In this document: positions 47,613 to 57,844 of the stretch, in pieces
Position numbering within the stretch: position 1 is the stretch's first letter
Layout: every line of letters starts with the position of its first letter
Position numbers and translations under genes: made by a program
Notes under the pieces: generated by a model
The model's database searches: none
What the model was told of the DNA's origin: nothing
The model's input: only the letters and a program-made list of their open reading frames with translations
Assembly: GCF_022288725.1 (NCBI RefSeq)
Contig: NZ_JAKNTA010000002.1
Span: forward strand, 1-62,830
Length of the DNA: 62,830 nucleotides
Reading direction: 5' to 3'
Origin: Kitasatospora sp. A2-31
GTDB lineage: Bacteria; Actinomycetota; Actinomycetes; Streptomycetales; Streptomycetaceae

Positions 47613-49205
47613 TCAGGCGACCGAGACGGCGCTCCAGGCGGCCGCGACCGCCGCGTACTCGGTGCTGTTCAGCCCGTAGAGGTCCTTGGCGGCGTTCAGG
47701 GACGCGGTGCGGGCGCCCTTGTAGTCCGTGGTGGACGTCATGTAGACGGTCAGCGCGCGGTACCAGATCTTGGCGACCTTCTGGTTGCCGATGCCGGTCA
47801 CCGTGGAGCCGTTGCAGGTCGGGCTGTTGTAGGTGAAGCCGTTGATGGTCCGGCTGCCGCTGCCCTCACTGGCCAGGAAGAACCAGTGGTTGCCGACGCC
47901 CGAGGAGTTGTGCACGTCGAGCTGGCCGACCTTGCGGCTCCAGCAGTCGGCGGAGCGGCCGTCGAGCGAGGGCTTGTCCATCCGGCGCAGCCACGGCGGG
48001 GTGGACTGGTCGCTGAACAGGTAGTCCGGCTTGTCCACGGCGTTGTTGGCGTACCACTCGACCATGGTGCCGAAGATGTCGCTGGTGGACTCGTTGAGGC
48101 CGCCGGACTCGCCGCTGTAGCGCAGGTTGGCGGTGGCGCTGGTGACGCCGTGGGTCATCTCGTGGCCCATCGTGTCGAGGTCGACCTGCTCGGGGTCGGT
48201 CACGCCGTCGCCGTCGCCGGTCATCATGCAGAAGCAGCTGTCCGACCACTGGGCGTTGTCCCAGTTGGTGCCGACGTGGACGAAGACCGTGGCGCCCTTG
48301 CCGTCGTTCTTGATGCCGTTCCGGCCGAAGGTGTTCTTGTAGTAGTCGTACGTCCACGCGGTGTTGGCGTGGGCGTCGACGGCCGCGGTGGAGCGGTCGG
48401 TGGAGAACTTCCTGCCGTCGCCCCAGACGTTGTCGGCGTCCGTGAACAGCGTGCCCGAGTTCGCGTTGAGCGAGCTGGACGAGACGTTGTGGGCGTCCTT
48501 GGTGATGGTCCCGCGCACCGGGTCGATCAGCGCGTAGCCGCCGGACTGCGCGGTGGTGTCGATGGTGACGTCACCGGTGTACTCGGAGTGGCCGGTGCCG
48601 CTGGCCTGGTGCTCGGAGTCGTAGGTCTCGATCTGCTCGCCGGTGGTGGCGTCGGTGACGACCACCTTGCCGGCCGGCTGGCCGTGCTCGCCGACACCGG
48701 CGACGGTGGTCTTCCAGGCGAGCCGGGGCGTGCCGTCGGCGGCCCAGACGACGAGCTCGGGCGAGCTGGTGGCGGAGTTGATGCCCGGTGCGGCCTGGAG
48801 CGCCTGACGCGCGCTCGCCTGCGCCGGGACCTTCGGAACGGTCGACTTCACGGCGGCGTCGTGGGCGGCCGCGCGGGAGGAGTCCTTGAGCCGGCCGCGG
48901 GCGTCCTGGTGCACCACCAGGTCGCCGCCGACGACGGGCAGGCCGAGGTAGGTGCGGTCGAAGCGGACGTGCTGGGTGCCGTCGGCGTCGACGATGACGT
49001 CCTTGACCTGGAGGTCCTGGCCGTCGCCGAAGCCGAACACGCCGGCGTTGTGGGCCACGTTGGCCCGGGCCTGGGCGATCGCCGCGTCACGGCCGGTGGG
49101 GGCGGCGTTCGCGGTGCCGGCCTGGAAGGTGGCGGCGACGAGGGCGGCGGTGGCCGCTATGGCTCCGGCCGCGAGGTGGCGGCGGTGAGAGGAGGTGGGG
49201 CTCAC
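47613..49205 (-). CDS. secreted thermolysin-like M4 metallopeptidase
   Basis: 530 residues. Signal peptide (ending ATFQAGTANAAP), an FTP/PepSY-type propeptide to about 205, then the M4 domain. HEMTH at 348-352 gives Zn ligands His348 and His352 and catalytic Glu349; Glu372 in GGLNESTSDIFG is the third ligand. A later conserved His for the transition state is expected in the VGNHWFFLASEG segment. The propeptide implies self-processing outside the cell. GTG 49205 follows GGAG by five bases; the frame upstream is not coding. No C-terminal P/Homo B domain. Confidence 0.92.
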   Translation of the reverse strand: MSPTSSHRRHLAAGAIAATAALVAATFQAGTANAAPTGRDAAIAQARANVAHNAGVFGFGDGQDLQVKDVIVDADGTQHVRFDRTYLGLPVVGGDLVVHQDARGRLKDSSRAAAHDAAVKSTVPKVPAQASARQALQAAPGINSATSSPELVVWAADGTPRLAWKTTVAGVGEHGQPAGKVVVTDATTGEQIETYDSEHQASGTGHSEYTGDVTIDTTAQSGGYALIDPVRGTITKDAHNVSSSSLNANSGTLFTDADNVWGDGRKFSTDRSTAAVDAHANTAWTYDYYKNTFGRNGIKNDGKGATVFVHVGTNWDNAQWSDSCFCMMTGDGDGVTDPEQVDLDTMGHEMTHGVTSATANLRYSGESGGLNESTSDIFGTMVEWYANNAVDKPDYLFSDQSTPPWLRRMDKPSLDGRSADCWSRKVGQLDVHNSSGVGNHWFFLASEGSGSRTINGFTYNSPTCNGSTVTGIGNQKVAKIWYRALTVYMTSTTDYKGARTASLNAAKDLYGLNSTEYAAVAAAWSAVSVA

Positions 49206-49431
49206 TCTGACTCCAGTCGGGGTAGCTGCAGGGGAAGAGCTGCGACAGAGATTGACGGTGCGCGGCCAACCCCGGCTAGGTGCTGAGTCAGATCTTGACC
49301 ATTTCGTGTCCTGCACTGATCGAAACTGATCGAGTGTGAATGCTCACTGTGAAAGCCGCTGTTGAAGCACTGACGGCGGGTGTGAATGACGGTGTGAACG
49401 TTGTTGCCCTCGGACGCCCTACGATCACGCC

Positions 49432-49848
49432 ATGACGACCCGGTACACCTGGCGCGGACCCTTCACCGACGACGAGCTCGACGCCCTGCACGCGGAGGGC
49501 TTCGGTGCGGCCAGCCGCGACCGGCCCGTCCGGCCCGTCGCCTGGCGCGCCCGGCTGGAGCGACACAGCCTCGGCTGGGTCTGCGCCCGCCCTGCCGCCG
49601 GCGGCCCGCTGACCGGCTTCGTCAACGTCGCCTGGGACGGCGGCGGCCATGCCTTCCTCCTCGACACCGTGGTCGCCACCGCGGCCCGCCGCGCGGGCGT
49701 CGGCACCCGACTGGTCGCGGCCGCCGTCGACGGCGCCCGCGCGGCCGGCTGCGAGTGGCTGCACGTCGACTTCGAACCCCACCTCCGGGCCTACTACCTC
49801 GACGCCTGCGGCTTCCGCAGCACCGACGCCGGCCTCCACCGGCTCTGA
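49432..49848 (+). CDS. GNAT family acetyltransferase
   Basis: 138 residues. FLLDTVVATAARRAGVGTRLVAAAVDGARAAG is the acetyl-CoA-binding helix-strand, and RAYYLDACGFRSTDAGLHRL completes the C-terminal GNAT strand pair. Upstream neighbour of the ATP-grasp gene on the same strand (80 bp apart) and possibly co-transcribed. The acceptor is unknown. Confidence 0.85.
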   Translation: MTTRYTWRGPFTDDELDALHAEGFGAASRDRPVRPVAWRARLERHSLGWVCARPAAGGPLTGFVNVAWDGGGHAFLLDTVVATAARRAGVGTRLVAAAVDGARAAGCEWLHVDFEPHLRAYYLDACGFRSTDAGLHRL

Positions 49849-49928
49849 CCGGACGACGGATTCGTCGTCCGGTGCGGTGTTCCTCGTTCTCCGGTCCCCG
49901 GCCGTCCCGGAGACCGTAGGCTCGCGGG

Positions 49929-51275
49929 ATGGACGGATGGGTGGAGGCCTGGACGGGCGGGGCGCGGGCGGTGCACCTGGGGAACGTGGCCGACTTCAAC
50001 GAGCAGTTCTTCGGCGCCGCCATGGACGACGCCCAGCGCGCGCGGCGGCTGCGCCAGGCGCACCACTACGCCTGCATGGCGACCTGCTACAGCCCCGAGC
50101 CCGCCCTGGTCGTGTTGCCGGCCGAGGTCGAACGGGCCTGGGTGGACTGGCTGGCCCGGGAGTTGGCGTGGGAGCCCGTCGAGCTGTACGGCGGGGTCGC
50201 GCCGGGCGGGACCCTGGCGCAGGCGCTCGCCGCCCGCCCGGCGCTGGCGGAGCGGATCGCCGAGTGCGGCCGCCCGGTGCTGCCGTGGGGCCGCACCGCC
50301 GCCCAGGGTGAGGGGAGCGCACTGGCGGCGGTTCGGCGCTACGAGTCCAAGGCGGCCACGCACGCGCTCTTCGCCGAACTGGCCCCCGCCCACCCGGGAA
50401 TCGCGGTGCCGCACCAGGAACAGCCCGGCACGACGCGGCGAGCCGCCCGCCGGCTGACCGCCCGGGCGGTCCGGGGCCTGACCACCGTGGTGAAGAGCCC
50501 GCACGGCGTCGGCGGCTACGGGACCGCCGTGGTGACGCCGCAGGAGCTGTTCGCGGCCGGCGGCGGCGGTGCGCTGCTGCGCCGCCTGGCCCGGGCCGAG
50601 GTGCTGGCGGTGGACGGCGGACTGCTGCTGGAGGAGTACGTCGACGGCGGCCGGGCCGACCGCCTGCGCGACCTCACCTTCGACGCGGTGATCGGCCCGG
50701 ACGGGCGCGTCCACCCCGTCGGGGTCGGCGAGATGGCCGTGGCCGGCACCAGCTACCAGGGGGTGACGGTCGGTCCGGGCGTGGTGCCGCCGGGCGTGGC
50801 GGCCACGGCCGAGCGGTTCGGGCTCGCCGTGGGCGAGCGCCTCGCCGCCGCGGGCCACCGGGGCTGGTTCGACGTCGACTTCGTCACCGACCGGGAGCGC
50901 CGGCTCGCCCCCACCGAGGCCAACCTGCGGCTCACCGGCCCGGCGATCGCCTTCAACCTGCGCGCGCGGCTGGACCGGGTCCGCGGCCCCGGCCACGTGG
51001 TCCGCACGCTGGACGGCCTGCGGCTCGGCGCCCGGCTCTCCCAGGAGGCGCTCCACGACCACCTGGACCGGCTCCGACCGCGCTGCGCCCGTCTCGGCGT
51101 CACCCTGCTGCCACTGGTGGTGACGGCCGGCTACGAGCCGGAGCCGGCCGTCGGCCTGGCGCTCGCCGCCCGCTGCGCCGGGCCGGGCGAGGCGCTGGAG
51201 GCACTGGACGCCGCCGAGGCGCTGGTCGCCGCGGCCGGTCAGGCGCTGGGGCGGATGTTCGCGGCGCTGCGCTGA
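49929..51275 (+). CDS. ATP-grasp peptide-ligase-like protein (PGM1-related)
   Basis: 448 residues. An N-terminal pre-ATP-grasp-like region (GNVADFNEQFFGAAMDDAQR) precedes an ATP-grasp fold with the nucleotide loop KSPHGVGGYGTAVV, LLLEEYVDGGRADRLRD and the metal/phosphate block FDVDFVTD...TEANLRLTGP. The architecture resembles the pheganomycin ligase PGM1 family, which joins amino acids or peptides through acyl phosphates without a ribosome. It is not a D-Ala ligase. Tail to tail with the adenylation gene at 51410. Confidence 0.7.
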   Translation: MDGWVEAWTGGARAVHLGNVADFNEQFFGAAMDDAQRARRLRQAHHYACMATCYSPEPALVVLPAEVERAWVDWLARELAWEPVELYGGVAPGGTLAQALAARPALAERIAECGRPVLPWGRTAAQGEGSALAAVRRYESKAATHALFAELAPAHPGIAVPHQEQPGTTRRAARRLTARAVRGLTTVVKSPHGVGGYGTAVVTPQELFAAGGGGALLRRLARAEVLAVDGGLLLEEYVDGGRADRLRDLTFDAVIGPDGRVHPVGVGEMAVAGTSYQGVTVGPGVVPPGVAATAERFGLAVGERLAAAGHRGWFDVDFVTDRERRLAPTEANLRLTGPAIAFNLRARLDRVRGPGHVVRTLDGLRLGARLSQEALHDHLDRLRPRCARLGVTLLPLVVTAGYEPEPAVGLALAARCAGPGEALEALDAAEALVAAAGQALGRMFAALR

Positions 51276-51354
51276 CCGGCGGACCGACGTCGCCGGCCGG
51301 CGGTCGCCTCCGCCGAAGCCGTCACCTCCGCCGGATCCGTCGCCCCGGCCGGGT

Positions 51355-51412
51355 CGTTCGTGTCCGCCGGGCCGTCATCCCGGGCGGGCCGTTCGTGTCC
51401 GCCGGGCCGTCA
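51355..51412. repeat. 23-bp direct repeat overlapping the adenylation gene stop
   Basis: The same 23 bases occur at 51355-51377 and 51390-51412 (start CGTTCGTGTCCGCC). The second copy ends with the TGA of the minus-strand gene, so the repeat may have arisen by tail duplication in the spacer between convergent genes. Confidence 0.8.
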
Positions 51413-53557
51413 CTTGCGTCCCGCGGGCGGTCGCCAGACCAGGAAGCGGACCACGATCGCGGCCGCGACCATCAGCGCGATGTTGAACACCGAGACCAGC
51501 AACGCCTGTCGGGGCCAGTCCGTCGCCGAGCTGGTCCGGTAGAGGTTGTCCTGCGGCCACCAGGAGGCCAGCAGCCAGAACACCGAGACGTGCGCGGCGA
51601 CGGAGAGCCCGAGTGGGCGGCCGAGCCGGACGACGGCCCGGGCACCCGCCAGCAGCCAGGCCACCCCCAGGCCGAACGAGCACCACTCGAAGAGGTAGAG
51701 GACGCGGAACCACCCGGCGTAGGGCCCCGGCACCGCCGAGACGTCCGTGGAGCCCGGCCACAGGCTGTCGGTGAGCAGCCAGGCGACCACGGTGACCGGC
51801 AGGGCCACCAGGAGAAAGAAGCAACCCGTGGGCGGGTCGTCGTCGGCCGGCTTCCCGGCACCGGCCTTGCCCCCGCCCCGGCCGGCCTTGCCGCGCAGCG
51901 ACGCGGAGCCGTCCGTCGGCGCGGCCCCGCCCAGCGAGGCGGAGAAGGAGAGGTGGTCGCGGGGGGCCGGCAGCGGCAGGGCGGTGCGGTCCAGCTTCCC
52001 GGCACGGGTGCGGGGGAGCGCCGGCAGGGCCACGACGGCGGCGGGCGCCTCCCCGGCCGGCAGCTCCTCGGCCAGCAGGGCGGAGAGCGACCAGGTGTCC
52101 GGCTCCGCGGCGCCGGGTGCCGTCACCGCGTAGCCCACCAGGGCTCGCCGCCCCGGCTCGGGTTCCACCTCGGCGACGGCGGCCTCCCGCACCGCCGGGT
52201 GGGAGCGCAGCAGCCCCTCGGCCCGCGCGGCCTCGGTGACCCGCCGGAGCACCGCGGCGGCCCGGACGCGCTCGGTCGGGCCGACCACGCCTTCGGCGCG
52301 CGCGGTGAACTCCAGCACGCCGTCCTCGCGGATCCGCCCGAGGTCACCGGTCAGCAGGATCCGCATGTCCGGGTCGAAGGCGGCCGGCACGAAGCGCCGC
52401 TCCGTCTCCTCCGGCCGGTTGACGTACCCGCGGCCCAGGCCCGGGCCGGCGACGGCGATCTCGCCGACCTCCCCGGGCGGCGCCGGCAACCCCTCCGGGC
52501 CGAGGACGTACACCCGCGCACCGGGGAAGGGCCGGCCGACCAGCGAGACCCGTTCGCTCCCCTCGCCGCCCGTCGAGCCCGCCGCGTCGAAGTACGTGCT
52601 GTCGACGGACGCCTCGGCGAGGCCGTAGACGTTGAGCACCCGGGTGCCGGCACCGAGCAGCCGCTGCAGGCCCAGCTGCTCGTCCAGGTACCACTTCTCC
52701 GCCCCGACCGTGATCAGCCGCACGCCGGGCAGGGACCCGCCGGCGGCCACCAGGTGGTCGTGCAGGCGCCGCGCGGTGCGGACGTTGAGCTCCAGGACGG
52801 TGATCCGCTCGGCGGCGACCAGGGCGGGCAGGTCGGCGATGTCGGCGGTGCGGTCCAGGGTGAGGTTGCGCGGCGAGACCACCAGGGTGGCGCCGGTACA
52901 GAGCGCACGTATCCAGTCGGCGGTGAAGACGTCGAACTCCAGGCTCGCCGTCTGCAGGATCCGGTCGGTGGGGCGCAGCCCGTACACCTCGCACCACCCC
53001 CGGTGGGCGGCCAGCAGGTTGCGGTGTTCGATCAGCGCGCCCCGGGGCAGGCCGGTCGAGCCCGAGGTGAAGAAGAGGCAGGCGAGGTCGTCCGGCCCGG
53101 TGGTGACCGCCGGCGGACCGGCGGGCAGCGCCGCGATCACCTCCGCCGCCGAGTCCAGGCAGACCACCGCCCGCCCGCCGGTGTCCGTCAGCCGCACCCG
53201 GTGCGCCTCCTCGGTCACCACCAGCACCGGGTCGGCGTCCGCCAGCACGTGGCGCAGCAGCGCGTCCGGTGCGCCCGGCTCCAGCGGGACGTACGCGCCG
53301 CCCGCCTTCAGCACCGCGAGCAGGGCGACGAACACCTCGGTGCCCCGGCCGAGCGCCACGGCCGCCCGGCCGCCCGGCTCCAGCCCCTGCGCGACCAGGT
53401 GGCGGGCCAGCCGGTCCGCACGTTCGTCCAGCTCACCGTAGGTCAGCTCCCGCGCGCCGCACCGGACGGCGACCGCCTGCGGCGACTGGCGCGCCTGTTC
53501 CTCGAACCGCCCGTGCAGCGTTCCGGCCCGCCCTGCCGGTTCCGCGTCCCACCCCAT
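51410..53557 (-). CDS. membrane-anchored, carrier-less NRPS-type adenylation enzyme
   Basis: 715 residues. Residues 1-540 are an amino-acid-type adenylation domain: A2 LKAGGAYVPLEPGAP, A3 TSGSTGLPRG near 160, A4 LEFDVF with the carboxylate-pocket Asp, A5 YGLAEASV, A7 LLTGDLGRI, and A10 RTRAGKLDRT with its catalytic Lys. The A8 hinge (normally GRxDxQVKxRGxRIE) is degenerate, reading ARAEGVVGPTERVR. No carrier or condensation domain follows; instead there is a charged linker and about four membrane helices (573-710). ATG 53557 is chosen for AAGGGGG. It can probably make aminoacyl-AMP at the membrane; the acceptor is unknown. Confidence 0.85.
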   Translation of the reverse strand: MGWDAEPAGRAGTLHGRFEEQARQSPQAVAVRCGARELTYGELDERADRLARHLVAQGLEPGGRAAVALGRGTEVFVALLAVLKAGGAYVPLEPGAPDALLRHVLADADPVLVVTEEAHRVRLTDTGGRAVVCLDSAAEVIAALPAGPPAVTTGPDDLACLFFTSGSTGLPRGALIEHRNLLAAHRGWCEVYGLRPTDRILQTASLEFDVFTADWIRALCTGATLVVSPRNLTLDRTADIADLPALVAAERITVLELNVRTARRLHDHLVAAGGSLPGVRLITVGAEKWYLDEQLGLQRLLGAGTRVLNVYGLAEASVDSTYFDAAGSTGGEGSERVSLVGRPFPGARVYVLGPEGLPAPPGEVGEIAVAGPGLGRGYVNRPEETERRFVPAAFDPDMRILLTGDLGRIREDGVLEFTARAEGVVGPTERVRAAAVLRRVTEAARAEGLLRSHPAVREAAVAEVEPEPGRRALVGYAVTAPGAAEPDTWSLSALLAEELPAGEAPAAVVALPALPRTRAGKLDRTALPLPAPRDHLSFSASLGGAAPTDGSASLRGKAGRGGGKAGAGKPADDDPPTGCFFLLVALPVTVVAWLLTDSLWPGSTDVSAVPGPYAGWFRVLYLFEWCSFGLGVAWLLAGARAVVRLGRPLGLSVAAHVSVFWLLASWWPQDNLYRTSSATDWPRQALLVSVFNIALMVAAAIVVRFLVWRPPAGRK

Positions 53558-53927
53558 CCGTCCATCCCCCTTCGTACCGTGCTTCCCTCCGATCCTGCCG
53601 CCAACTGCGGCCCGGCGACAGGGGCGTACGGCAAACCCGGCCGTTCGCGCCCCCATCGACCGGGTCCACCGCCGGGCGGGCCCCTGCCGGGCGGGCACCT
53701 GCCGGCAGGGGCCCCGTCGATCGGGCCCCGCCGATCGGCGTTCACCGCGCGGAGGCCGCCGGCGGACGCGCGCCGGCGGGCGTCCGTCCACACCTCGGAC
53801 CGGACCGGCCGCCGCCCGGCCGACGGTTGTACTCTGCACGCGGAGGGTCGGCGCCGGCCCGTCCGGTGCGCCGCCGGCACAGGCCCCCACCCCAGCCCGG
53901 CGCCGAACCCCCGGAGGACCGCCCGCC
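53558..53927. other. divergent spacer between adenylation and ABC ATPase genes
   Basis: 370 bases. Contains a 13-bp inverted repeat (53678-53714), a repeat of GATCGGGCCCC-like and GATCGG elements near 53715-53740, and an AT-richer stretch before the ATPase start. No gene. Confidence 0.5.
53678..53714. promoter_or_regulatory. 13-bp perfect inverted repeat in the divergent spacer
   Basis: GGGCCCCTGCCGG, 11-nt centre, exact complement, 120 bases upstream of the adenylation gene and 214 before the ATPase. Candidate operator for the divergent pair or leader hairpin. Confidence 0.5.
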
Positions 53928-54767
53928 ATGAGCACGTCCGACCTGCTGCCGTCCGACCCGCTGCCCACGGGCCCGCTGCTGCGCACCCGTGACGTCGAGG
54001 TGGTCCGGAACGGCCGCCACCTGCTGCGCGGGATCACACTGGCCATCGAGCCCGGCGAGCACTGGGCGCTGCTGGGGCCCAACGGGGCCGGCAAGTCCAC
54101 CCTGCTCGGCCTGCTCGGCGCCGTCTCCCACCCCACCCACGGGGAGGTGGACGTGCTCGGCCGCCGGCTGGGCCGGGTCGACATCCGTGACCTGCGCGCC
54201 CACCTCGGCCACGTCAACCCGCGCCACCCGCTCCGCTCGCCGCTGACCGTGCGCGAGGTGGTGCTGACCGGCCTGGCCAACACCATCGAGCCCGATCTGT
54301 ACCGCAAGCCCGGCCCGGAGGCCGTCGACCGGGCGGAGCGGCTGATCGAGACCCTGGGCATGACCGCGGTCGCCGAGTCACCGTGGCCGACGCTCTCCCA
54401 GGGGGAGCGCGGCCGTGCGCTGATCGCCCGCGCCCTGATGCCCAGCCCGCGCCTGCTGCTGATGGACGAGCCGGCCACCGGGCTCGACCTGACCGCCCGC
54501 GAGCTGCTGCTGGACAGCCTGGACCTGCTGCGCCACCAGCACCCGGAGCTGGCCAGCGTGCTGGTGACGCACCACCTGGAGGAGCTTCCGGAGAGCACCA
54601 CCCACGCGCTGCTGCTGCGCGAGGGGGAGTGCGTGGCCGCCGGACCGGTGGACGAGGTGATGACCACCGAGCTGGTCAGTACCTGCTTCGATCACCCGAT
54701 CCGGATCAGCCGGCACGAGGGGCGCTGGACGGCGCGGACGGCGGCCCGGCGCGTGCCGGGGGCGTGA
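53928..54767 (+). CDS. stand-alone ABC transporter ATPase
   Basis: 279 residues, one nucleotide-binding domain. Walker A GPNGAGKST (near 56-64), Q-loop region LGHVNPRHPLRSP, signature LSQGERGRA, Walker B LLLMDEP, and H-loop LVTHH. It resembles YlmA-like lone ATPases; the Q-loop has Asn where a Gln is usual (HVNP), and no permease gene is adjacent. Whether it is a transporter subunit or a cytosolic ATPase is open. GGAGG lies ten bases before ATG. Confidence 0.87.
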   Translation: MSTSDLLPSDPLPTGPLLRTRDVEVVRNGRHLLRGITLAIEPGEHWALLGPNGAGKSTLLGLLGAVSHPTHGEVDVLGRRLGRVDIRDLRAHLGHVNPRHPLRSPLTVREVVLTGLANTIEPDLYRKPGPEAVDRAERLIETLGMTAVAESPWPTLSQGERGRALIARALMPSPRLLLMDEPATGLDLTARELLLDSLDLLRHQHPELASVLVTHHLEELPESTTHALLLREGECVAAGPVDEVMTTELVSTCFDHPIRISRHEGRWTARTAARRVPGA

Positions 54768-55253: not shown

Positions 55254-56399
55254 ATGTCCGCCCGTCGTTCCACCGCAGCCACGCTGCTCACCCTCGCTGT
55301 GGCGACCGCCGCGCTGGCCGGCTGCTCGCAGAAGAAGGACGACAAGGCCTCCTCCGACGCCGTGAAGGTGAACGCCACCGACACCGCCTGCGAGGTCTCG
55401 AAGAGCAGCTTCCCGGCCGGCCACGTCGTCCTCGACATCACCAACAAGGGCTCGAAGACCACCGAGGTCTACGTCTACGCCGCGGGCGACAAGATCGTCA
55501 CCGAGCGCGAGAACATCGGCCCCGGCACCAAGGCGACCATCAACGCCGAGATCAAGGCCGGCTCCTACGAGATCGCCTGCAAGCCGGGCATGGTCGGCGA
55601 CGGCATCCGTCAGAAGATCACCGTGACCGGCGACGCCTCCGCCGCGGCCGCCCCGGCCGACCCGCGGCTCACCGCCGCCGTCGACGCCTACCGCAAGTAC
55701 GCGCAGGAGCAGGCGGACCTGACCATCCCGGCCGTCGAGGCCTTCGCCGCCGCGATCAAGGCCGGCGACGTCGAGAAGGCCAAGTCGCTCTACGCCCCGT
55801 CGCGCACCGGCTGGGAGCGCACCGAGCCGGTCGCCGAGAGCTTCGGCGACATCGACCCGAAGACCGACACCCGTGAGGACGGCCTGGAGGCCGGCCAGGA
55901 GTGGACCGGCTGGCACAAGCTGGAGAAGTCGCTCTTCGCGGACGCCAGGATCGGTGACGACGAGAAGAAGCTGGCCGACCAGCTGGTCACCGACCTGAAG
56001 GACTGGCAGAAGAAGATCCCCGAGGCCGAGATCACCGCGACCAGCATGGCCAACGGTGCCAAGGAACTGCTGGACGAGGTCTCCACCGGCAAGATCACCG
56101 GTGAGGAGGACCGCTACAGCCACACCGACCTCGCCGACTTCGCCGCCAACGTCGAGGGCGCGAGGAAGGCCTACGAGCTGCTGAAGCCGGTCGCCTCCGA
56201 GAAGGACGCCGAGCTGGCCAAGACGCTGGACTCGGAGTTCGCCGCGACCGAGGCGCTGCTCGCCAAGTACAAGCAGGCGGACGGCACCTACACCTCCTAC
56301 GACAAGGTCGCCGACGCCGAGCGCAAGACCTTCTCCGACGCGGTGAACGCGCTGGGCGAGCCGCTCTCGAAGCTGGCCGCCGCCGTCGTCGTCAAGTAG
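55254..56399 (+). CDS. efeO: iron-uptake lipoprotein EfeO (cupredoxin plus M75/imelysin)
   Basis: 381 residues. A lipoprotein signal with the lipobox LAGC (lipidated Cys24), a cupredoxin-like domain to about 125 (strands ending KITVTGD), then the helical M75 peptidase-like domain with the metal motif HxxxE in GWHKLEKSLF. EfeO donates iron to the EfeU permease after oxidation by EfeB. GGAG CCCGC precedes ATG 55254. First gene of the operon; the gene order here is O-B-U rather than the E. coli U-O-B. Confidence 0.92.
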   Translation: MSARRSTAATLLTLAVATAALAGCSQKKDDKASSDAVKVNATDTACEVSKSSFPAGHVVLDITNKGSKTTEVYVYAAGDKIVTERENIGPGTKATINAEIKAGSYEIACKPGMVGDGIRQKITVTGDASAAAAPADPRLTAAVDAYRKYAQEQADLTIPAVEAFAAAIKAGDVEKAKSLYAPSRTGWERTEPVAESFGDIDPKTDTREDGLEAGQEWTGWHKLEKSLFADARIGDDEKKLADQLVTDLKDWQKKIPEAEITATSMANGAKELLDEVSTGKITGEEDRYSHTDLADFAANVEGARKAYELLKPVASEKDAELAKTLDSEFAATEALLAKYKQADGTYTSYDKVADAERKTFSDAVNALGEPLSKLAAAVVVK

Positions 56400-56509
56400 C
56401 ACCGACCGCGACACCCGGCACCGAACACCACCCCACCCACAGCGCCGTGGCGGCCCCCAGTGGCCGCCACGGCATCCGTGAGACAGCACAGAGAAGGGCC
56501 CGCCCGCCG

Positions 56510-57844
56510 ATGGACGCCGAGAACGAGCAGCAGAACGGGACGCCGGCCGGTACCGGCGCCACCGCCACCGCGGCCGTCGCCGCCGAGCAGCACGGCACCG
56601 GCCGCAGCGCGGTCAGCCGCCGCGCCGTGATCGGCTGGGCCGGTGCCGGGGTCGCCCTCGGCGCCGCCGGAGTCGGCTCGGTCGCCGCCGCCACCCGGCA
56701 GGACGACCCGGCCCCCGCCCCGGCCGCCGCCGGCGGGGAGATCCCCTTCTACGGGGACCACCAGTCCGGCATCTCCACCCCGGTCCAGGACCGCCTGCAC
56801 TTCGCCTCCTTCGACGTCTCCGCCACCGCGACCCGTGAGTCGCTGGTGAAGATGCTCAAGGAGTGGACGAAGGCCGCCGCGGCGATGACCGGCGGCCGCG
56901 AGGTCGGCAGCGGCGCCGCCAGCGGCCTGCCCGAGGCGCCGCCGGACGACACCGGCGAGGCCCTCGGCCTGCCCGCCTCCCGGCTCACCCTCACCATCGG
57001 CTTCGGCCCGACCCTGTTCGAGAAGGACGGCGTCGACCGCTTCGGCCTCAAGGCCCGCCGCCCCGAGGCCCTGATCGACCTGCCGAAGTTCAAGGGCGAC
57101 AACCTCGACCCGCAGCGCACCGGCGGCGACCTCTGCGTCCAGGCCTGCGCGGACGACCCCCAGGTCGCCGTGCACGCGATCCGCAACCTGGCCCGCATCG
57201 GCATGGGCACGGTGAACATCCGCTGGTCGCAGCTGGGCTTCGGCAAGACCTCCTCCACCACCCCGGACGCCCAGACGCCGCGCAACATGATGGGCTTCAA
57301 GGACGGCACCCACAACATCGCGGGCACCGACACCGAGAAACTCGGCGAGCACGTCTGGGTCGCCCCGGGCGAGGGCCCGGACTGGATGACCGGCGGTTCG
57401 TACCTGGTCGCCCGCCGGATCCGGATGCACATCGAGACCTGGGACCGCACTCCGCTCAAGGAGCAGGAGGACATCTTCGGCCGCACCAAGGGCGAGGGCG
57501 CCCCGTACGGCAAGGCCAAGGAGCACGACACCCCGGACCTCAAGGCGATGCCCGAGGACTCGCACGTGCGGCTGGCCCACCCGGACAGCAACAACGGCCT
57601 GATGATCCTGCGCCGGGGCTTCTCCTTCACCGACGGCACCGACGGCCTCGGCCGCCTGGACGCCGGCCTGTTCTTCCTCGCCTACCAGCGCGACACCCGC
57701 AAGGCGTTCGTCCCGCTGCAGCAGCGCCTCGCCGGCAGCGACGCGCTCAACGAGTACATCCAGCACGTCGGTTCCGCCCACTTCGCCTGCCCGCCCGGTG
57801 TCCGGAAGCCCGGCGAGTGGTGGGGCCAGGCCCTCTTCGGCTGA
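56510..57844 (+). CDS. efeB: Dyp-type heme peroxidase EfeB, Tat-exported
   Basis: 444 residues. Twin-arginine signal SRRAVIGWAGAG near 36-47, then the dye-decolourising peroxidase fold with the GFKDGTHN motif near 263-270 (GxxDG of the heme distal side) and a downstream conserved HIETWDR segment typical of this family. It uses heme and peroxide chemistry to handle iron for EfeU outside the cytoplasm. Lies 110 bases after efeO. The codon pattern is uniform, so the operon looks ancestral. Confidence 0.92.
   Translation: MDAENEQQNGTPAGTGATATAAVAAEQHGTGRSAVSRRAVIGWAGAGVALGAAGVGSVAAATRQDDPAPAPAAAGGEIPFYGDHQSGISTPVQDRLHFASFDVSATATRESLVKMLKEWTKAAAAMTGGREVGSGAASGLPEAPPDDTGEALGLPASRLTLTIGFGPTLFEKDGVDRFGLKARRPEALIDLPKFKGDNLDPQRTGGDLCVQACADDPQVAVHAIRNLARIGMGTVNIRWSQLGFGKTSSTTPDAQTPRNMMGFKDGTHNIAGTDTEKLGEHVWVAPGEGPDWMTGGSYLVARRIRMHIETWDRTPLKEQEDIFGRTKGEGAPYGKAKEHDTPDLKAMPEDSHVRLAHPDSNNGLMILRRGFSFTDGTDGLGRLDAGLFFLAYQRDTRKAFVPLQQRLAGSDALNEYIQHVGSAHFACPPGVRKPGEWWGQALFG

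What the first reader, a model, noticed from the sequence alone, without database searches (positions are those of the whole stretch)
49432..54767. Membrane-anchored adenylation enzyme without a carrier, facing a PGM1-like ATP-grasp ligase
Seen: an amino-acid-type A domain (51410-53557) has intact A3, A4 Asp, A7 and A10 Lys, but a degenerate A8 hinge and no carrier or condensation domain; it is fused directly to about four membrane helices. An ATP-grasp peptide-ligase-like gene and a GNAT gene lie tail to tail with it, and a lone ABC ATPase is divergent. Known: A8 drives the switch to thioester formation on a carrier. Inference: loss of A8 and carrier together fits an enzyme that makes only aminoacyl-AMP at the membrane, passed to a lipid, glycan or peptide rather than to a pantetheine arm. 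The convergent orientation means co-function with the ATP-grasp gene is a hypothesis, not an operon argument.
Basis: partly seen in the sequence, partly recalled or inferred. Interest (0 to 1): 0.75.

Follow-up and report, generated by a model that had tools for sequence, protein, structure and literature searches.

The report
Carrier-free membrane adenylation–ligase pair
In bacteria of the Kitasatospora group, an adenylation domain joined to a predicted four-helix membrane piece is almost always encoded tail to tail with a peptide-ligase-like enzyme, and the two would likely build a small amide at the membrane without the usual carrier protein.

Summary
The gene at 51410-53557 (-) is an NRPS-type A domain with intact A3, A4 Asp, A7 and A10 Lys, no A8 and no carrier, joined to a membrane module. 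It faces a PGM1/BesA-type ATP-grasp gene (49929-51275, +). The separate GNAT gene and the ABC gene are not constant partners.

Constant parts are the ligase and the A_C-plus-membrane protein (near-invariant WWPQDN motif, no Pfam family, no close solved fold). The A core is optional: intact with a nearly fixed pocket (DVAETGVVDK, predicted cationic amino acid) in the Kitasatospora group, degenerate in Streptomyces, absent elsewhere. Of loci with a readable ligase, a GNAT domain is fused to it in 25, none with an intact A core; 17 lack the GNAT and all 17 have an intact A core. On the ligase tree this is one GNAT loss.

My reading: A core and GNAT fill the same acyl-donating slot in a membrane-tethered, carrier-free amide-forming system. 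Product, chemistry and export role are untested.

The parts
51410..53557 (-). A/membrane gene, 715 aa: A core + A_C subdomain + Gly-rich linker + four-helix membrane module
   Evidence: start codon chosen by eye after a G-rich stretch
52289..53515 (-). A core (N-terminal adenylation subdomain); pocket DVAETGVVDK at D209, V210, A213, E256, T283, G285, V310, V318, D319 (K521 in A_C)
   Evidence: positions set by hand from the alignment and recalled position numbering
53051..53068 (-). A3 P-loop TSGSTG
52220..52312 (-). place of A8/hinge: canonical pattern absent
51995..52219 (-). A_C subdomain (PF13193) with A10 Lys K521
51413..51832 (-). four-helix membrane module, 140 aa
51728..51760 (-). loop 1 WPGSTD...VP motif, predicted extracytoplasmic
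51536..51562 (-). WWPQDNLYR motif at the end of helix 3, predicted extracytoplasmic
49929..51275 (+). PGM1/BesA-type ATP-grasp ligase, 448 aa, with conserved K141, K189, glycine loop, E235, D317, E330, N332
49432..49848 (+). separate GNAT gene, variable neighbour, not a constant part
53928..54767 (+). divergent ABC ATPase; close relatives beside the pair in Kitasatospora-type loci only, not a constant part

Best explanation
The window encodes a conserved two-protein pair, a PGM1-type ATP-grasp ligase and a predicted membrane-anchored protein with an intact, carrier-less adenylation domain, that would likely build a small N-capped amide at the inner face of the membrane. Proposed steps: (1) the ATP-grasp enzyme joins a carboxylate to an amine through an acyl-phosphate (inferred from the fold). 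(2) It docks on the A_C-membrane protein, the only other constant part (inferred). (3) In the Kitasatospora group the A core activates a cationic amino acid as aminoacyl-AMP (predicted from the pocket) and, lacking the A8 motif and a carrier, passes it directly to the amine of the ligase's substrate or product (inferred). (4) In relatives the GNAT domain fused to the ligase does this capping from acyl-CoA, and the A core decays or is missing (the distribution is shown, the chemistry is inferred). (5) The membrane module, whose conserved motifs are predicted to face outward, receives or exports the product (inferred).
For: Coupling: 32 genomes with both, 1 with the membrane module only, 3 with the ligase only, 34 with neither, of 70 in the genus (Fisher p 2.3e-15); 4 both, 1 ligase only, 340 neither of 345 in the class (p 8.6e-9). 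In 45 of 49 fetched loci the ligase lies on the opposite strand, facing the A gene. Among neighbour families in six or more loci only these two recur widely in both the Kitasatospora-type and the other loci; two more have one stray locus in the other group. G006 keeps both although 5.3 Mb apart. A core selected in the Kitasatospora group: pocket DV[AG]E[TSA]GVVD in 19 of 19 such rows and DV.E.GVVDK in 50 of the 120 relatives listed; A core has lower dN/dS than the membrane part in 6 of 6 pairs there, and the order is reversed in 5 of 7 Streptomyces pairs. Exclusive pattern: GNAT fused in 25 loci, A core intact in 0 of them (20 scored, 5); no GNAT in 17 loci with a ligase and a readable A core, intact in 17. 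Topology: K/R mean 3.97 in loop 2 and 2.07 at the C end against 0.20 in loop 1.
Against: The GNAT/A pattern rests on a single GNAT loss on the ligase tree, so it is one correlated event, not 42 independent ones; the root uses one fragmentary outgroup, and the module tree does not resolve whether the A core is ancestral. Two of the 25 GNAT-fused rows, L074 and L080, align poorly over the A core. No acceptor, product or interaction is shown. Loop 3 also holds K/R (mean 1.80), so topology is not certain. Some Kitasatospora-type A cores have a changed P-loop (5 of 50), and L045 has A10 Lys replaced by Arg and no ligase in the DNA fetched. The genus sample holds exceptions (G057 module only, G059 ligase only). 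The membrane module's distant relatives stand alone without this ligase, some on short contigs, and partial ligase relatives occur without the module (G751, G625).
Confidence: 0.38

Rival explanations
1. tRNA-free lipid aminoacylation: the A core makes a cationic aminoacyl-AMP that is passed to a lipid head group held by the membrane module, which flips it, working like actinomycete LysRS-MprF fusions; the ATP-grasp enzyme supplies the acceptor.
For: Predicted cationic pocket, direct fusion to a membrane module whose conserved motifs are predicted to face outward, no carrier. PMC2922099 (passages) describes actinomycete MprF-like proteins fused to a paralogous lysyl-tRNA synthetase.
Against: The A core is degenerate or absent in much of the family while the membrane module stays, with the ligase in the loci that could be read; a role in lipid aminoacylation would hardly survive that. 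No MprF family or structure is among the matches of the module, which does not exclude one.
Confidence: 0.15
2. Scaffold: the A domain is a relic that only holds the ligase at the membrane; its active-site conservation in the Kitasatospora group is structural.
For: Catalytic residues are lost in Streptomyces and Amycolatopsis, and proteins without the A core occur in many genera; the ligase is retained where it could be seen.
Against: Nearly fixed substrate pocket and stronger constraint on the A core than on the membrane part in the Kitasatospora group.
Confidence: 0.22
3. The A core loads a carrier protein in trans from one of the genome's many NRPS clusters.
For: The genome holds many NRPS-type A domains (77 matches).
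Against: A8 pattern found in none of 167 family members; a carrier-motif scan of 672 called genes in 48 loci gave five hits, all in genes of 348 aa or more, one of them the A gene itself.
Confidence: 0.1
4. Chance neighbourhood: the two genes sit together by common descent without shared function.
For: Most loci come from two clades, so genomes are not independent.
Against: Patchy yet joint presence in about half the genus, one genome with the two genes unlinked but both kept, joint decay in G003, different flanking genes in the two clades.
Confidence: 0.05

Closest known systems
Epsilon-poly-L-lysine synthetase (Pls) and delta-poly-L-ornithine synthetase PosA
   Same: A domain for a cationic amino acid in one protein with a membrane part (PMC10522769, passages)
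   Different: Those have a carrier domain and a terminal domain whose transmembrane helices are separated by three segments; here no carrier, a single four-helix module, and the acidic pocket residues sit at positions 4 and 9 of the code rather than position 3
Stand-alone A domain of streptothricin beta-lysine polymerisation
   Same: Amide formation by a stand-alone A domain, cationic amino acid (one sentence in PMC10522769)
   Different: Soluble and inside an antibiotic cluster (recalled); no membrane module and no ATP-grasp partner known to me
PGM1 (pheganomycin peptide ligase; PDB 3wvq)
   Different: PGM1 links a small core peptide to a nonproteinogenic amino acid (PMC8939145, passages); no such cluster genes among the seven window genes scanned
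BesA, L-propargylglycine-L-glutamate ligase (PDB 8yi6)
   Same: Best sequence relative with a solved structure, E 8.2e-9 with the family profile
   Different: Far below the NCBIfam cut-off (19.7 of 750 bits)
GNAT/ATP-grasp enzymes of N-acetylglutaminylglutamine amide synthesis
   Same: Recalled as a GNAT and ATP-grasp combination that makes an N-acetyl dipeptide, the likely chemical analogue of the GNAT-fused relatives
   Different: No NCBIfam match to such a family for three fused relatives at E 0.01; known here only from recall and a search listing
Actinomycete LysRS-MprF fusions
   Same: Amino-acid-activating enzyme joined to a membrane part (PMC2922099, passages)
   Different: Aminoacyl-tRNA synthetase, tRNA dependent; here an NRPS-type A domain

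Membership tests
NRPS amino-acid adenylation domain | AMP-binding fold with A3, A4 Asp, A7, A10 Lys | tested here: met
NRPS amino-acid adenylation domain | A8/hinge motif for thioester formation | tested here: not met
   pattern in none of 167 family members, present in control loci L002 and L072; TIGR01733 below cut-off
Pls/PosA-type homopolymer synthetase | carrier domain after the A domain | tested here: not met
   no PP-binding match
Pls/PosA-type homopolymer synthetase | Glu at position 3 of the pocket code | tested here: not met
   Ala at that position; Glu at 4, Asp at 9; code rule from PMC10522769 passages
PGM1/BesA-type ATP-grasp amide ligases | shared fold over the full length | tested here: met
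PGM1/BesA-type ATP-grasp amide ligases | conserved ATP-grasp lysines and Mg-binding Glu/Asn | tested here: met
   K141, K189, E330, N332 invariant in 37 rows; roles assigned from general knowledge of the fold
PGM1/BesA-type ATP-grasp amide ligases | amide ligase activity | not testable with these tools
   needs purified protein
BesA equivalog (NF042917) | score at or above curated cut-off | tested here: not met
   19.7 bits against 750
MprF/LysX-type lipid aminoacylation | MprF flippase/synthase domains | tested here: inconclusive
   no Pfam match to the membrane module even at E 10; no close solved fold listed

The most novel reading that the evidence does not exclude
A new kind of membrane-tethered, carrier-free amide-forming machine: a constant core of ATP-grasp ligase plus an A_C-derived docking domain on an undescribed four-helix module, onto which evolution plugs either an A core (aminoacyl-AMP donor) or a GNAT domain (acyl-CoA donor) for the same capping step.
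Probability: 0.3. Interest if true: 0.82.

Novelty: new variant of a known kind. Interest (0 to 1): 0.62.

Why it matters
NRPS A domains normally hand their product to a carrier; a selected, pocket-conserved A domain that has neither carrier nor A8 motif and sits at the membrane would show a different use of adenylation. The pair occurs in several actinomycete genera but is annotated piecemeal in the listings seen (AMP-binding protein, GNAT family N-acetyltransferase, hypothetical protein), and its membrane module has no Pfam match. The reciprocal GNAT/A-core pattern gives a direct, cheap experiment on which donor feeds which acceptor.

Tried and rejected

Rows set aside before counts: of 49 loci, L072 is an ordinary NRPS without the module, L049 and L050 end at the A domain, L045 has no ligase in the DNA fetched; L052 and L065 have the ligase cut by a contig end, so their GNAT state is unknown; L076 lacks the A core because its contig starts there. 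Gene calls are a home-made GC3 method.

Full report

Is the pair real? In 70 genomes of the genus the ligase is found in 35 and the membrane module in 33, together in 32. One genome (G057) has only the module, three (G003, G045, G059) only the ligase, 34 neither; Fisher p 2.3e-15. Two of the three ligase-only cases are poor: G003 has a ligase match with an in-frame stop and about 60 residues of the A gene left, and G045 has short ligase pieces at a contig end. By my reading of the coordinates, 31 of the 32 are convergent on one contig, 27 with matches less than 200 bases apart and 4 with 1.2-4.2 kb between; in G006 the two lie 5.3 Mb apart. In 345 genomes of the class the module is found in 4 and the ligase in 5, 4 shared (p 8.6e-9). 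Of 49 loci fetched by the A/membrane protein, 45 carry the ligase on the opposite strand. Among neighbour families present in six or more loci, none other recurs widely in both the Kitasatospora-type and the other loci; two have one stray locus in the other group. These tests treat genomes as independent, which they are not; the unlinked G006 and the joint decay in G003 are the better evidence.

What is constant and what is not. A search with the membrane module alone, which can return only short proteins, finds many of about 245 residues made of A_C plus module, with no A core, in genera such as Nonomuraea, Actinomadura, Saccharothrix and Kibdelosporangium; in 24 aligned, the place of the A10 Lys holds Lys in 1 and Glu in 15 (my count). 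Two such proteins with flanks, L075 (Actinoallomurus) and L078 (Actinoplanes), face the ligase; the neighbourhoods of the others were not seen. Of the 120 longer relatives listed (of 145 found), 50 keep the pocket DV.E.GVVDK (45 of them with an intact P-loop) and 70 do not. Named ones with the pocket are mostly Kitasatospora, a few labelled Streptomyces; named ones without it are Streptomyces or Amycolatopsis. Distant relatives of the module are stand-alone proteins of roughly 150-200 residues, mostly with WWPH-type motifs, in two other families of the phylum; none of 16 has this ligase in the DNA fetched, some of it on short contigs.

GNAT and A core. The ligase is fused to an N-terminal GNAT domain in 25 loci; in none of these is the A core intact (20 scored, 5, of which L074 and L080 align poorly). 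In 17 loci with a ligase but no GNAT and with a readable A core, it is intact in all. The three genomes of the class sample other than the window's own that hold both genes also carry the GNAT in the same open frame as the ligase. On the ligase tree the GNAT-less enzymes form one clade (98/92) nested among GNAT-fused ones, so GNAT was lost once. The outgroup, L124 from G751, also carries the GNAT, but its match to the ligase family ends after 155 profile positions and no membrane module was found in its genome. This polarity is therefore provisional, and the module tree does not resolve the history of the A core. A GNAT of the fused type was not found elsewhere in the window's genome (the same query does match genomes with the fusion), but G041 keeps one without a ligase within the 7 kb read.

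Is the A core of the window active? The pocket, placed by hand on an NRPS alignment with recalled position numbering and extracted by script, is DVAETGVVDK and nearly fixed in the group. Acid at positions 4 and 9 suggests a cationic amino acid: PMC10522769 (passages) reports an acid at position 4 in an ornithine domain of bacitracin synthetase and notes that the acid may sit at different positions. The one intact pocket from another order, L052, reads DVAEMGTIDK; its ligase is cut by the contig end and its membrane part ends after the first helix. By a simple dN/dS count on 13 hand-picked, non-independent pairs, the A core is more constrained than the membrane part in 6 of 6 Kitasatospora-type pairs and less so in 5 of 7 Streptomyces pairs. 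I read this as an active A core here and a decaying one there.

The membrane module. Four helices (mean pLDDT 94.5); no meaningful solved match. Positive charge sits in loop 2 and at the C end, which puts loop 1 (WPGSTD..VP) and the WWPQDN.YR motif (WWPQDN in 165 of 167 proteins) outside, away from the A domain and the ligase. Loop 3 has some positive charge too, so this is a prediction.

Mechanism and verdict. The best-supported part is that ligase and A_C-membrane protein form one system. The proposed part is that the A core and the fused GNAT supply the same N-capping acyl group from AMP or CoA donors, and that the membrane module receives or exports the product. I found no paper on it in the listings.

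Noticed in passing
55254-57844: efeO and efeB (iron uptake) lie next to the ABC ATPase; ABC, efeO and efeB recur together in many Kitasatospora-type loci.
   Followed up: partly
47613-49316: Thermolysin-like M4 protease gene, recurrent neighbour of the ligase in many Kitasatospora-type loci.
   Followed up: no
L102-L117: Stand-alone relatives of the membrane module (mostly WWPH-type motif) in two other families of the phylum; the one tested has no Pfam match; function unknown.
   Followed up: partly
L124: GNAT plus the first 155 profile positions of the ligase family, then no further match in the frame, in a genome without the membrane module; G625 has a similar partial match with an in-frame TGA.
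   Followed up: partly
G058, contig 1: Two copies of the pair with equal scores, in opposite orientation near the two ends of the contig, as in terminal inverted repeats.
   Followed up: no
G000: The genome holds 77 matches to the A domain, many in very long open frames.
   Followed up: no
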